Part shown: one piece after another, positions 14,375-17,867 of the stretch
How the letters are laid out: every line of letters starts with the position of its first letter
Numbering within the stretch: position 1 is the first letter of the stretch
Assembly: GCA_025800395.1 (NCBI GenBank)
Contig: JAOXRU010000152.1
Coordinates: 1 to 36,191 of the forward strand
Direction: 5' to 3'
Source: Flavobacteriaceae bacterium
GTDB lineage: Bacteria; Bacteroidota; Bacteroidia; Flavobacteriales; Flavobacteriaceae
DNA length: 36,191 nt
Notes under the pieces: model-generated
What the model was told of the DNA's origin: nothing
What the model saw: the letters and a program-made list of their open reading frames with translations, nothing else
The model's database searches: none
Position numbers and translations under genes: made by a program

Positions 14375-16195
14375 TCAATTCTTTGCATCCGAACCCCTTT
14401 CCTTATTATCGGGATGATAATAGAAATATACTTTAGCTGCTTTGGAAGGGCCTACCACCTCGGTTAAGGCGTTTTTTGAAGCCTCCTTTATTCGCTTTAC
14501 CGATTTAAAAGCTTGCAACAATTGGTTTGCAGTAGCCTTCCCTATTCCTTCTATCCTTTCGAGCTGGGTACCTACAGCTGCCTTACTCCGCTTGTTGCGG
14601 TGAAAGCTTATCCCAAAACGATGTGCCTCATTGCGAAGATGCTGTATGGTCTTCAACGACTCGGACTTCTTGTCCAAATATATAGGGATGCTATCCCCAG
14701 GAAAATAAATCTCTTCCAATCGTTTTGCAATACCGATAATGGCAATCTTTGAACGAAGCTCCAACCGATCCAAACTCTTTAATGCAGAAGACAATTGACC
14801 CTTACCACCATCGATAACGATAAGCTGTGGCAAAGACTTCTCCTCATCTAGCAATCGCTTGTATCTTCGATACACTACTTCTTCCATACTAGCAAAATCG
14901 TCGGGTCCTACTACCGTTTTTATATTGTAGTGTCGATAATCTTTCTTGTATGGCTTGGCATCTCGAAACACCACACAAGCCGCCACTGGGTGAGTCCCCT
15001 GTATATTACTATTGTCAAAACACTCAATATGGGTTGGCAATTGAGACAGGCGCAGGTCTTTTTGCAATTGCTGTAAAATTCGCTGGCTATGTCGTTCCGG
15101 ATCAGTAAGTTTGATTTGCTTGTATCGGTCCAATCGAAAAAATTTGGCGTTGCGCTCCGAAAGTTCTACGATCCGTTTCTTATCTCCCAATTGGGGAACA
15201 ATGCAGCGAATTTCCTCTGGAAGCTCCAAAGCAAAAGGTACCAAAATTTCCTTGGATTTGGCTTCAAATCGTTGGCGTATTTCCAATACTGCCATTTCCA
15301 ACAATGCTTTATCGGTTTCTCCTAATTTTTTCTTGAGCTCTATCGTATGGGAACGTACTATAGCACCAAAATTGATCTGCATAAAATTCACAAACCCAAA
15401 ATCCATATCCGACACGATACTAAATACATCCACATTGCTAATTTTGGGACTAATAATAGTGGATTTGGCCTGATAATTTTCCAGTATTTCTATTTTCTCT
15501 TTGATACGTTGCGCTTCTTCAAACTCTAAAGCCGCTGCCAATTCCTGCATCTGCTTTCTAAAGGTTTTTAGTGCCGCTCCAAAATTACCATTTAGTATTT
15601 TGCGTATCTGCTGAATATAAAGCGTATAATCTTCTGCGGTTTCCTTTGCCTCACAAGCCCCCTTGCAATTCCCGATATGGTATTCCAAACAAAGCTTGTA
15701 CTTACTGTTGTTTATTTTCTCTGGAGACAAATCATAGGTACAACTTCGCAATGGATACAAACCTCGGATGAGATCCATAAGGGTATGTACTGTTTTCATA
15801 CTGGTATAGGGCCCAAAATAACTCGAACCGTCCTTTACGATTCGCCTAGTGACAAAAACCCTGGGAAATCTTTCTTTTTTGATACATATCCAAGGGTAGG
15901 ATTTATCGTCTTTGAGCAAAACATTGTATCGCGGCTTATACTTTTTGATGAGATTGTTTTCCAATAGTAGCGCATCCGTTTCGGTATCTACAACGATATG
16001 TTCTATTCGCTTGATCTTCGAAACCAAAATGCGTGTCTTTCCATAGTCGTGTGTCTTATTGAAATACGACCGTACTCGCTTGCGCAAATTCTTGGCCTTT
16101 CCTACATATATAATGGTATCGGTTTTGTCGTAGTACTGATACACCCCAGGTGTCTGTGGCAAAACATCTATTTGTATTTTTAAAGCATCTTCCAA
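14375..16195 (-). CDS. uvrC: Excinuclease ABC subunit C
   Basis: 606 residues. UvrC makes both incisions in nucleotide excision repair after UvrA/UvrB mark damage. Order seen: GIY-YIG nuclease near residues 10-95 (TPGVYQYY, IIYVGKAKNLRKRV), a Cys-rich linker, a UVR motif for UvrB contact around 207-230, the RNase-H-like nuclease starting near 385 with IECFDNSN and later VIDGGKGQL, and a C-terminal helix-hairpin-helix (LERIEGIGKATANQLL). The start is a TTG: an in-frame stop lies upstream, and the first ATG would lose the whole GIY-YIG core. A well-formed promoter sits about 70 bases upstream. Confidence 0.97.
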   Translation of the reverse strand: MEDALKIQIDVLPQTPGVYQYYDKTDTIIYVGKAKNLRKRVRSYFNKTHDYGKTRILVSKIKRIEHIVVDTETDALLLENNLIKKYKPRYNVLLKDDKSYPWICIKKERFPRVFVTRRIVKDGSSYFGPYTSMKTVHTLMDLIRGLYPLRSCTYDLSPEKINNSKYKLCLEYHIGNCKGACEAKETAEDYTLYIQQIRKILNGNFGAALKTFRKQMQELAAALEFEEAQRIKEKIEILENYQAKSTIISPKISNVDVFSIVSDMDFGFVNFMQINFGAIVRSHTIELKKKLGETDKALLEMAVLEIRQRFEAKSKEILVPFALELPEEIRCIVPQLGDKKRIVELSERNAKFFRLDRYKQIKLTDPERHSQRILQQLQKDLRLSQLPTHIECFDNSNIQGTHPVAACVVFRDAKPYKKDYRHYNIKTVVGPDDFASMEEVVYRRYKRLLDEEKSLPQLIVIDGGKGQLSSALKSLDRLELRSKIAIIGIAKRLEEIYFPGDSIPIYLDKKSESLKTIQHLRNEAHRFGISFHRNKRSKAAVGTQLERIEGIGKATANQLLQAFKSVKRIKEASKNALTEVVGPSKAAKVYFYYHPDNKERGSDAKN

Positions 16196-16265
16196 ATCGT
16201 ATCTTCTACTTTTTCCGTTTTAATCTTCTCAACAAAATCATCCAGCATCTCTCAAAAGGATATTA

Positions 16266-16293
16266 CAAAAATACCTTTTAAAATCGAATACAA
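16266..16293 (-). promoter_or_regulatory. uvrC: uvrC promoter
   Basis: On the minus strand TTG (16293-16291), 17 bases, then TATTTTTG (16273-16266), a perfect TAnnTTTG. Both elements and the spacing fit the Flavobacterium sigma-A consensus. The predicted start is near 16259, giving a leader of about 64 bases before the TTG start codon. Confidence 0.65.
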
Positions 16294-16441
16294 AACTTGC
16301 TTTGTTTTTTACAAACCTTCAGACGATTCAATATCTCCTTGCGCTCTTTCTTACCTATGTGTTTTTAAAAGTCACACACTATACAGCTATTTACATTTAG
16401 TCGTGTAAGTTTTATCTGTCTATGTTGGAGAAATAGGAGCG

Positions 16442-16449
16442 TAGGTTTG
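16442..16449 (+). promoter_or_regulatory. -7 box for the leader-peptide / folate cyclo-ligase unit
   Basis: TAGGTTTG is a perfect TAnnTTTG match on the plus strand. A TTG lies 14 bases upstream (16425-16427), shorter than the usual 17-23, so the -33 element is uncertain. A transcript starting near 16456 would include the 32-codon frame and the hairpin over the ligase start. Confidence 0.45.
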
Positions 16450-16540
16450 TTTTTTTTATGCAATTAATCGTCAAAAACCAACATTTAATAGAATTATTAC
16501 TTATATTTAACACACTAAATTAATTAATAGTATAAACAGG

Positions 16541-16639
16541 ATGAACACTTATTTAACCATAATTGGGGTGTATGTTTTATTGATGGTAGTATCACATACC
16601 TTGTATCCCCTAATTGAAAAAAAGAAAATTACCAAGTAA
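16541..16639 (+). CDS. Possible 32-residue single-span membrane peptide or leader peptide
   Basis: An ATG at 16541 opens 32 codons ending with TAA at 16637-16639. The peptide begins MNTYLTIIGVYVLL, continues hydrophobic to about residue 25 and ends basic (EKKKITK), which predicts one membrane helix with its C-terminus in the cytosol. It is too short to be sure by composition alone. Reasons to keep it: it follows a -7 box, is in the same direction as the folate cyclo-ligase, and stops 15 bases before the left arm of the hairpin covering the ligase start. It could be a real small membrane protein, a leader peptide, or chance. Confidence 0.4.
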   Translation: MNTYLTIIGVYVLLMVVSHTLYPLIEKKKITK

Positions 16640-16654
16640 ATTCTAAAAACAAGC

Positions 16655-16706
16655 ATTTATCCATTATTTTAGCAAAAATCCCCAAAAATAATGGATAAAT
16701 CTTTTT
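16655..16706 (+). promoter_or_regulatory. Perfect 16-bp hairpin enclosing the folate cyclo-ligase start codon, with U tract
   Basis: ATTTATCCATTATTTT (16655-16670) is exactly complementary to AAAATAATGGATAAAT (16685-16700), with a 14-base loop. The ligase ATG (16691-16693) is inside the right arm, and CTTTTT follows at 16701-16706. The stem has only three G-C pairs, but sixteen uninterrupted pairs are unlikely by chance. In RNA it would hide the start codon, and with the U tract it could also act as an attenuator. In DNA it could be a large operator. Confidence 0.7.
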
Positions 16707-17251
16707 ACAGAAAACGGTACCAACAAAGACGCGAATCCAGCACAAGTCATCAGAGAGACACTTGGAGCTTAGAAATCGCAAACCGCCTTTTGGAACTTTC
16801 TATTTGGGATCATGTATACTATCACTTGTTTTTAACCATAGAAAGGAAAAAAGAAATAGACACTAGCTATTTACTCCATATTCTACAAGGAAAAGACAAA
16901 GAAGTGGTGGTATCGCGCTCCAACATCGATCGCAGTCTCACCAATATCTTACTCACCGATAACACCAAATTTGCGTACAACAAATGGAATATACCCGAAC
17001 CGCAAAATGGCGTCGAAGTACCCACCAACCTAATAGATGTAATATTTGTACCGCTACTGGCATTTGACCAAAACGGACACCGAATCGGATACGGCAAAGG
17101 CTATTATGACAATTTTCTGAGCAATTGTAGAGCAAACGCACTCACCATAGGACTTTCTTTTTTTCCTCCCATAGAAGAGAGTATCCCTGTAGAAGCACAC
17201 GACAAAACATTAGATTGCGTCGTTACTCCGCAGGAAGTGTATCGTTTTTAG
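16691..17251 (+). CDS. 5-formyltetrahydrofolate cyclo-ligase
   Basis: 186 residues, typical length. It uses ATP to turn 5-formyl-THF (folinate) into 5,10-methenyl-THF, returning a storage or inhibitory folate to the one-carbon pool in the cytosol. Seen: basic N-terminus (KSFYRKRYQQRRE) for ATP/folate binding, the IDVIFVPLLAFDQNGHRIGYGKGYYDNFL block that is the family hallmark near 135-165, and HDKTLDCVVTP at the end. The start is fixed by the family N-terminus although the ATG lies within a perfect inverted repeat. Its last 29 bases overlap the end of lspA on the other strand. The E. coli homologue is called ygfA/fau; I leave the symbol open. Confidence 0.95.
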   Translation: MDKSFYRKRYQQRRESSTSHQRDTWSLEIANRLLELSIWDHVYYHLFLTIERKKEIDTSYLLHILQGKDKEVVVSRSNIDRSLTNILLTDNTKFAYNKWNIPEPQNGVEVPTNLIDVIFVPLLAFDQNGHRIGYGKGYYDNFLSNCRANALTIGLSFFPPIEESIPVEAHDKTLDCVVTPQEVYRF

Positions 17252-17867
17252 TTTCTTTTTTGAATACGCGCTTATTAAACACTATCATGATACCTACACC
17301 AGTACTAATGGCAACATCGGCTATATTGAAAATCGGATCAAAGAAGGTAAAACGCTGCCCACCTTTGAAGGGCACCCAATCGGGCAACACGGTGTCTATC
17401 ATAGGAAAATAAAGCATATCCACTACCTTTCCATGAAATAAACCACCATAATTATTCTCTGCAAACATGGTGGCAACTTGCTTGTGACTGTGATCGAACA
17501 ACATTCCATAAAACATCGAATCTATAAGATTTCCCAATGCTCCTGCAAACACCAAACAAACCGCCCATATCAGCATTTTATCCGATTTTTTGCGAATCAC
17601 ATCATACAACCAATACCCTATCCCCATGATAGCAAACATGCGAAACACGGTGAGCACCAATTTACCGTTTTTCTCTGATATGGGTAAAAAATCTGATGGT
17701 TTTGCCCCCCAAGCAGCACCTTCATTTTCGATGAAGTAAATACGAAACCAATCGTGAAAGATAATGTCGTATTCGTGCAAAGAATAATGTGTTTTAATAT
17801 AGATTTTGCTTATTTGATCCACCAACAAAATGACTAAAACAAATAAAGTAGCTTTTTTAAGATTCAT
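17223..17867 (-). CDS. lspA: Lipoprotein signal peptidase (signal peptidase II)
   Basis: 214 residues, longer than the roughly 165 of E. coli. Inner-membrane aspartyl protease removing signal peptides from prolipoproteins after lipidation. Seen: four hydrophobic segments, Asp17 in LLVDQISK, IENEGAAWG at 46-54, and the two catalytic Asp residues, Asp116 in GNLIDS and Asp184 in FNIADVAIS. The extra length is an insertion between the catalytic Asp motifs (about 120-170), which I recall as usual in Bacteroidetes enzymes. The window encodes several lipobox proteins that would be its clients. Its 3' end overlaps the convergent cyclo-ligase gene by 29 bases, so the two mRNAs are complementary there. 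Confidence 0.96.
   Translation of the reverse strand: MNLKKATLFVLVILLVDQISKIYIKTHYSLHEYDIIFHDWFRIYFIENEGAAWGAKPSDFLPISEKNGKLVLTVFRMFAIMGIGYWLYDVIRKKSDKMLIWAVCLVFAGALGNLIDSMFYGMLFDHSHKQVATMFAENNYGGLFHGKVVDMLYFPMIDTVLPDWVPFKGGQRFTFFDPIFNIADVAISTGVGIMIVFNKRVFKKETKNDTLPAE

What the first reader, a model, noticed from the sequence alone, without database searches (positions are those of the whole stretch)
16541..16706. Start codon of 5-formyl-THF cyclo-ligase buried in a perfect 16-bp hairpin, with a possible leader peptide just upstream
Seen: arms 16655-16670 and 16685-16700 are exactly complementary over 16 bases. The ATG at 16691 is in the right arm, and CTTTTT follows. A 32-codon hydrophobic frame (16541-16639) stops 15 bases before the left arm, close enough that a ribosome at its stop could reach the stem. 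Inference: translation of the leader, or a ligand or protein, decides whether the stem forms, giving control of folate recycling by start-codon sequestration or attenuation. I know of no described element like this for this enzyme.
Basis: partly seen in the sequence, partly recalled or inferred. Interest (0 to 1): 0.75.

Follow-up and report, generated by a model that had tools for sequence, protein, structure and literature searches.

The report
Peptide leader hiding folate-enzyme start codon
In one branch of the Flavobacteriaceae a conserved gene for a peptide of about 28 residues, probably membrane-spanning, sits just upstream of a folate-recycling enzyme gene whose start codon is predicted to lie in an RNA hairpin, an arrangement that would hold back the enzyme and likely tie its translation to that of the peptide.

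Summary
Shuffles do not give such a hairpin.

The frame belongs to a gene family. A 28-aa homologue under purifying selection lies directly upstream of FCL in all 66 other strong matches among 397 family genomes; the window's copy is divergent (leave-one-out E 0.002, best of 1032 frames). The 16-bp stem is particular to this genome, but concealing the FCL start is not: in 68 other loci, and again in 58 held-out ones, spacers pair on average with their own FCL start better than in any of 5000 swaps, although 17 of 69 loci do not show it. FCL genes without the small ORF, and three other gene starts, do not either. A second, replicated helix joins small ORF and spacer.

Best reading: an operon whose start-codon hairpin likely makes FCL translation depend on ribosomes leaving the small ORF. 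Peptide and pairing rest on comparison; repression, coupling and signal are inferred. A Streptococcus "fthC" uORF candidate on the same enzyme is in print, with a terminator instead. Verdict: new variant of a known kind.

The parts
16541..16639 (+). small ORF, 32 codons plus stop (MNTYLTIIGVYVLLMVVSHTLYPLIEKKKITK); divergent member of a 28-aa, probably single-TM peptide family
   Evidence: leave-one-out profile E 0.0022, best of 1032 six-frame segments of the window
16561..16568 (+). 5' side of helix 1 (AATTGGGG, codons 7-10 of the small ORF)
   Evidence: MFE; the family-wide helix 1 signal is
16607..16615 (+). 3' side of helix 1 in this genome (CCCCTAATT); here it falls inside the longer small ORF rather than in the spacer
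16640..16690 (+). 51-nt spacer between small ORF and FCL
16655..16670 (+). left arm of the start-codon hairpin (helix 2)
16671..16684 (+). 14-nt loop; contains most of CCCCAA (16680-16685), an alternative partner of UUGGGG 16563-16568
16685..16700 (+). right arm of the hairpin, containing the FCL start codon 16691-16693
16691..17251 (+). 5-formyltetrahydrofolate cyclo-ligase, 186 aa
14375..16195 (-). uvrC, divergent upstream neighbour, present in all 68 linked loci
17223..17867 (-). lspA, convergent downstream neighbour, present in all 68 linked loci

Best explanation
The conserved small ORF and the cyclo-ligase gene are likely one transcript in which a predicted RNA hairpin over the cyclo-ligase start codon would keep that gene nearly silent unless ribosomes that have just finished the small ORF move on into the spacer and open it. 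Shown by comparison: the peptide family is conserved and selected as protein; in every strong match it is directly upstream of FCL; on average the spacer pairs with the first 30 nt of its own FCL gene in a species-specific way; and the first half of the spacer pairs with codons 7-15 of the small ORF. Inferred: co-transcription, repression by the hairpin, and release by post-termination (scanning or re-initiating) ribosomes. In this model helix 1 would fold the leader shut when the small ORF is idle, and its melting by translating ribosomes would leave the spacer as a track towards the FCL start. What modulates the small ORF is unknown. The peptide is probably also a small membrane protein in its own right.
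For: Linkage: 66 of 66 strong matches outside the window, and 2 of 7 weaker matches fetched, lie directly upstream of FCL on its strand, with the order uvrC|smORF|FCL|lspA. Of 80 named GTDB loci, 76 have FCL with an ATG next, 2 have FCL but no in-frame ATG near the aligned start, and 2 lie too near a contig end. Peptide selection: M1, Y4, Y11 and M15 in 69 of 69 sequences; median pN/pS 0.25 over 92 pairs with pS 0.05-0.6. Helix 2: own spacer with own FCL start -5.82 against -3.99 kcal/mol swapped, 0 of 5000 swaps as good; without the window 0/5000; 58 held-out loci 0/5000; 91, 70 and 45 de-duplicated representatives 0/5000 each. Controls: at smORF, lspA and uvrC starts native pairing is weaker than swapped; FCL without smORF, n=54, z +1.2. 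Opening cost 6.39 (n=126) against 4.74 kcal/mol (n=54), p 9e-6. Helix 1: 0/5000, 0, 0 and 1 of 5000. smORF starts themselves are open (mean z +0.44). RNAalifold puts a hairpin at the FCL start in three hand-picked clades treated separately. In SD-less F. johnsoniae, structure around the start tunes initiation (PMC6847099, abstract and passages).
Against: No RNA or protein data. With a profile built without it, the window's own peptide scores only E 0.0022, though best of 1032 frames, and its pN/pS against the others is near 1 (up to 1.18). Masking the small ORF in silico hardly changes the mean opening cost (6.79 to 6.66; 6.55 with a ribosome at the stop; 6.05 with 25 nt of spacer masked), so unfolding by the translating ribosome alone is not supported. 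The spacer (21-73 nt, median 45; 51 here) is long for coupling, which a review calls most efficient at small distances (PMC12548453, abstract and passages). The signal is a mean: 17 of 69 own spacers rank below the middle and 5 show no interaction. Double compensatory changes within a clade are few: 1 pair of 10 in A4, and 41 of 500 shuffles reach the covariation score. An internal FCL stretch folds almost as well (z -0.90 against -1.19). No transcript start is mapped; 18 of 69 spacer regions hold a weak Bacteroidetes-promoter-like match, the window's not, but a sigma-70-type match lies at 16614-16642, at chance level (15 found in the region, 15.2 expected).
Confidence: 0.47

Rival explanations
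1. Static dampener: the hairpin simply fixes a low FCL : small-protein ratio in an operon. There is no coupling and no signal; the peptide works as a membrane protein.
For: Conserved residues are spread along the helix with a possible face Y4, Y11, M15, F18; the smORF start is open and the FCL start closed; masking the smORF does not release FCL.
Against: Does not explain helix 1 between small ORF and spacer, nor why concealment goes with the small ORF and is absent from FCL genes without it.
Confidence: 0.25
2. Stall-dependent translational attenuator (erm/cat type): ribosome pausing in the small ORF or at its stop, from amino-acid or fMet-tRNA shortage or nascent-chain arrest, masks segment 1 so that the spacer halves pair and free the FCL start.
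For: 1:2 and 3:4 helices both found; weak 2:3 pairing in the discovery set (p 0.03 and 0.013) and de-duplicated sets (80, 98 and 30 of 5000); 58 of 69 peptides end in Lys/Arg-Asp/Glu directly before the stop; folate status bears on fMet-tRNA, as suggested for the Streptococcus motif.
Against: 2:3 pairing absent in the held-out set (2097/5000); residues 22-26 vary; no run of one amino acid; masking the small ORF does not lower the opening cost.
Confidence: 0.15
3. Ligand, protein or temperature control of the hairpin without any role for small-ORF translation (riboswitch, autogenous repressor site, AU-rich RNA thermometer).
For: AU-rich stem (2 G-C of 16 pairs) whose predicted stability falls from -22.7 at 10 C to -13.3 kcal/mol at 37 C.
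Against: No conserved primary-sequence core: stems and loops differ in sequence and register between clades; no Rfam match at E up to 1 in 16100-17300.
Confidence: 0.06
4. The window's hairpin is an accident of AT-rich sequence or a DNA-level element (operator, cruciform), and FCL has its own promoter in or near the repeat.
For: The perfect stem is unique to this genome; TATTTTAG in the left arm resembles a Bacteroidetes -7 element by my reading; a sigma-70-type match lies at 16614-16642 (chance level).
Against: No supporting -33 element in the window's spacer in a relaxed scan; 0 of 40 shuffles gave 16 bp; the family-wide RNA pairing signal also holds without the window. A start set by the 16614-16642 match would still leave the hairpin in the mRNA.
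Confidence: 0.07

Closest known systems
fthC motif, uORFC-39-1 (Streptococcus), PMC11109978 (section 13 read)
   Same: A conserved short upstream ORF with hairpins before a 5-formyl-THF cyclo-ligase gene; proposed to control it.
   Different: Streptococcus only (69 representatives); its third hairpin looks like an intrinsic terminator. Here: Flavobacteriaceae, no terminator called, hairpin over the start codon itself, and a hydrophobic peptide of about 28 aa conserved as protein. No homology between the two was tested.
mgtQ of Salmonella mgtCBRU, PMC8092293 (abstract and section headings)
   Same: A small ORF in an intergenic region whose translation is reported to free a start region held in an inhibitory stem-loop.
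   Different: mgtQ has 8 codons and its stem-loops overlap it; here the peptide is about 28-32 residues and the window's stem lies beyond the stop. The acidic residue 2 of this family (68 of 69) recalls mgtQ Asp2; no test.
RNA-unfolding or re-initiation translational coupling, PMC12548453 (abstract and passages)
   Same: Inhibitory structure at the downstream start, upstream gene on the same strand.
   Different: Coupling is described as most efficient at small distances; here the upstream gene is a tiny conserved peptide, the median spacer is 45 nt, and the phylum lacks SD sequences (PMC6847099).
Translational attenuators of erm/cat genes (recalled)
   Same: Leader peptide plus tandem helices 1:2 and 3:4 with the start in segment 4.
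   Different: The defining alternative helix 2:3 is not reproducible here.
Folate (THF) riboswitches; 6S RNA-ygfA operon (recalled)
   Same: RNA elements tied to folate or FCL genes.
   Different: No Rfam match in 16100-17300; no conserved aptamer-like core seen.

Membership tests
5-formyltetrahydrofolate cyclo-ligase (PF01812) | Pfam profile match above the curated cut-off | tested here: met
   114.2 bits against 27, residues 3-180
28-aa smORF family upstream of FCL (defined here) | position directly upstream of FCL, same strand, between uvrC and FCL | tested here: met
28-aa smORF family upstream of FCL (defined here) | sequence match of the window's peptide to a profile built without it | tested here: met
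   weakly: E 0.0022, 13.7 bits, best of 1032 six-frame segments, next 0.057; the stronger values come from profiles that include it. It carries M1, Y4, G9, Y11, L14, M15
fthC motif (uORFC-39-1) | intrinsic terminator as third hairpin | tested here: not met
   no terminator called at the site; 2 G-C pairs of 16; the stem holds the FCL start codon
fthC motif (uORFC-39-1) | uORF with conserved start and stop before FCL | tested here: met
fthC motif (uORFC-39-1) | match to its covariance model | not testable with these tools
   the motif's alignment is not held; no Rfam family matched
Translational attenuator (erm type) | start of the target gene sequestered by helix 3:4 | tested here: met
   (predicted structure)
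Translational attenuator (erm type) | alternative helix 2:3 that frees the start | tested here: inconclusive
   p 0.013-0.03, 2097/5000 held-out, 30-98/5000 de-duplicated
Translational attenuator (erm type) | ribosome stalling in the leader | not testable with these tools
   needs toeprint or ribosome profiling
Translationally coupled gene pair | downstream translation depends on upstream translation | not testable with these tools
   needs reporters
Riboswitch | conserved ligand-binding core | tested here: not met
   no Rfam match; stems and loops differ between clades

The most novel reading that the evidence does not exclude
An undescribed family of 28-residue membrane peptides in one clade of Flavobacteriaceae doubles as the sensor of a translational gate on one-carbon recycling: translating (or inserting) the peptide opens a start-codon hairpin on 5-formyl-THF cyclo-ligase. 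The hairpin drifts freely in sequence and register while the pairing is kept, and it evolved independently of the Streptococcus fthC uORF that sits on the same enzyme.
Probability: 0.3. Interest if true: 0.75.

Novelty: new variant of a known kind. Interest (0 to 1): 0.6.

Why it matters
It would be a second, apparently unrelated lineage in which a short upstream ORF sits on 5-FCL, suggesting that cells repeatedly need to tie folate recycling to translation status. It would also give a compact natural test of start-site occlusion and coupling in a phylum without Shine-Dalgarno sequences, and it adds a conserved small membrane-type peptide with no match in the scans made here (window peptide against Pfam; six members against NCBIfam). 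The comparison used (own spacer against swapped spacer) can find such drifting hairpins where column-wise covariation is weak.

Tried and rejected
Terminator reading: none called at the site, and the stem is AU-rich. Riboswitch or known RNA family: no Rfam match. Dispersed repeat or REP-like element: no other exact copy of the arm in the genome. erm-type switch: 2:3 helix weak in discovery, absent in held-out, weak again in de-duplicated sets that overlap both. Direct unmasking by the ribosome at the stop: not supported by the masking calculation. Internal promoter in the spacer: window negative in a relaxed Bacteroidetes scan, 18 of 69 spacer regions with a weak match; a sigma-70-type match at 16614-16642 at chance level. 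A TAnnTTTA-like element 20-24 nt before the small ORF is the best match in 18 of 69 loci, not in the window; not pursued. Column covariation within clades is too weak to carry the case alone. Literature searches: PMC library only; apart from the four papers named in the report I saw listings.

Full report
Observation. The inverted repeat is exactly as described: 16 of 16 pairs, 14-nt loop, FCL ATG 16691 in the right arm, CTTTTT after it. It is the longest perfect hairpin (loop 3-30 nt) of the window (next 12 bp), and 40 dinucleotide shuffles never reached 16 bp (maximum 14, once). The wider 231-nt leader is not exceptional as a whole (z -1.77, 11 of 200 shuffles fold as well). The downstream ORF is PF01812. 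The 32-codon frame at 16541-16639 is there.

The small frame belongs to a gene family. Of the 30 FCL loci returned (46 of 60 genomes had a match), 5 besides the window's own had a 28-aa frame of the same pattern at the same place (alignment A1). Searching 397 family genomes with A1 gave one strong copy (E below 1e-8) in 67, the window's included. I fetched 73 places: the 66 strong ones outside the window and 7 weaker ones picked from the listing. All 66, and 2 of the 7, lie directly upstream of FCL on its strand, start to start 108-160 nt in these loci and the window together, with divergent uvrC before and convergent lspA after; the other 5 weak ones do not. An order-level search of 296 genomes found 10, all in the same family. 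A scan of GTDB genomes found 208 relatives, of which 80 were kept; names include Muriicola, Robiginitalea, Zeaxanthinibacter, Eudoraea, Croceivirga, Croceitalea, Flagellimonas, Maribacter, Ulvibacterium, Arenibacter and Cellulophaga. Of those 80, 76 have an ATG-started FCL next, 2 have FCL without an in-frame ATG near the aligned start, and 2 lie too near a contig end. M1, Y4, Y11 and M15 are identical in 69 of 69 sequences, G9 in 65; median pN/pS is 0.25 over 92 pairs with pS 0.05-0.6; 58 of 69 end in Lys/Arg-Asp/Glu. Pfam (window peptide) and NCBIfam (six members) gave nothing.

The window's own peptide is divergent and four residues longer. The E-values come from profiles that contain it. 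With a profile of the 68 others it is the best of 1032 six-frame segments of the window, but only at E 0.0022, and its pN/pS against others is near 1, so its membership rests on this plus the identical position. No same-genus relative was returned.

The FCL start is concealed where the small ORF is present. For 69 loci the -45..+40 region has mean folding z -1.19, against +0.44 (smORF start), +0.47 (lspA), +0.60 (uvrC) and +0.08 (21 FCL genes without smORF); an internal FCL stretch is similar (-0.90), so it is as a start region that this is unusual. Because stems differ between clades, I tested whether each spacer pairs with its own gene better than other spacers do. Native -5.82, swapped -3.99 kcal/mol, 0 of 5000 swaps as good; without the window 0/5000. 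At 69 smORF, 68 lspA and 68 uvrC starts native pairing is weaker than swapped. In 58 distinct held-out loci (of 76 usable, after removing those identical to the first set or to each other) the result repeats (0/5000). With representatives below 85, 78 and 72% identity (n = 91, 70, 45, window excluded) it is 0/5000 each time. The effect is a mean: 24 of 69 own spacers rank in the top 10, but 17 rank below the middle and 5 show no interaction. For 54 FCL genes without the small ORF there is no effect (4392/5000 swaps as good, z +1.2); those 54 are 33 of 40 loci picked by hand from the best FCL matches plus 21 of 24, the rest dropped for lack of an in-frame ATG. Opening cost of -10..+12 is 6.39 kcal/mol with smORF (n=126) and 4.74 without (n=54), p 9e-6, phylogeny not corrected. 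Eight of the 40 have FCL near divergent uvrC without the small ORF; the six with an ATG cost 1.8-6.1 to open.

Anatomy. The signal maps to the second half of the spacer with FCL nt 10-27 (0 of 3000 swaps; 0/5000 held-out). Two groups of registers dominate: stems such as GTTTAATCG/CGATTAAAC with the ATG in the loop, and stems such as TCAACAT/ATGTTGA or CGTAAAT/ATTTACG with the ATG in or near the stem. The window's 16-bp stem is another register and the strongest: of 127 spacers its own pairs best with its FCL start. RNAalifold chose a hairpin at the FCL start in three hand-picked clades separately (16, 13 and 11 sequences). Column covariation within a clade is modest: in A4, 92.5% of cells paired (5 of 500 shuffles as high), one pair changed on both sides, and 41 of 500 shuffles reach the covariation score. 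An unbroken strong stem over the start is in 70 of 127 loci, against 46.9 (maximum 68) from swaps. A second helix joins small-ORF nt 19-45 to the first half of the spacer (0/5000; 0, 0 and 1 of 5000); CCCC is in 46 of 69 and 43 of 58 spacers and can often pair with the Gly-9 codon region. Small ORF and FCL start do not interact beyond swaps. In the window the corresponding partner CCCCTAATT lies inside the longer small ORF.

Mechanism. In F. johnsoniae, which lacks SD sequences, structure around the start tunes initiation (PMC6847099, abstract and passages), so concealment should repress FCL (inferred). Masking the whole small ORF, or the small ORF plus 13 nt, changes the mean opening cost little (6.79, 6.66, 6.55), and in the window, of the masks tried, only 25 nt past the stop opens the start (16.6 to 4.5). 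A ribosome halted in or at the end of the small ORF is therefore not enough; one that moves into the spacer after termination would be. The alternative 2:3 helix of erm-type switches is weak and failed in the held-out set. I therefore favour coupling by post-termination ribosomes, with a static dampener as main rival and a stall-dependent switch third. I have no transcript, structure-probing or translation data.

Known relatives. The nearest published element I found is the Streptococcus fthC motif: a uORF and three hairpins, the third terminator-like, before the same enzyme (PMC11109978, section 13 read). Salmonella mgtQ (PMC8092293, abstract and headings) and translational coupling in general (PMC12548453, abstract and passages) work similarly. 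I saw no paper on this Flavobacteriaceae element in the listings (PMC library only).

Noticed in passing
L123 (G280:C2:19828-19890, minus strand): A second, shorter copy of the peptide (MTYFIALGTYLILMFIFKVYFHYNH) with no FCL, uvrC or lspA match in the 6.1 kb fetched, in a genome that also has the linked copy; it hints at a function of the peptide in trans or a decayed duplicate.
   Followed up: partly
spacers of the 69 + 58 loci: CCCC occurs in 46 of 69 and 43 of 58 spacers, often able to pair with the Gly-9 codon region of the small ORF; in some loci it sits in the hairpin loop just before the ATG.
   Followed up: partly
small ORF codon 2 and last two codons across 69 sequences: Asp or Glu at residue 2 in 68 of 69 (Asn in the window), reminiscent of the Asp2 reported for mgtQ; 58 of 69 peptides end in Lys/Arg-Asp/Glu before the stop, the window's in Thr-Lys.
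   Followed up: no
L100, L106 (and L180, L183): FCL aligned starts read TTG in L100 and GTG in L106; in L180 and L183 no in-frame ATG was found near the aligned start.
   Followed up: no
L218, L220, L221, L224, L231, L236, L254, L255: FCL lies near divergent uvrC without any recognisable small ORF, so the gene order alone does not bring the peptide.
   Followed up: partly
L101, L103: The otherwise nearly invariant Gly-9 is Val in these two small ORFs, and their spacers have no CCCC.
   Followed up: no
G000: The window's genome is a 667-contig assembly with 7.7% estimated contamination and no same-genus relative returned; its FCL is at most 58% identical to the other matches listed.
   Followed up: no
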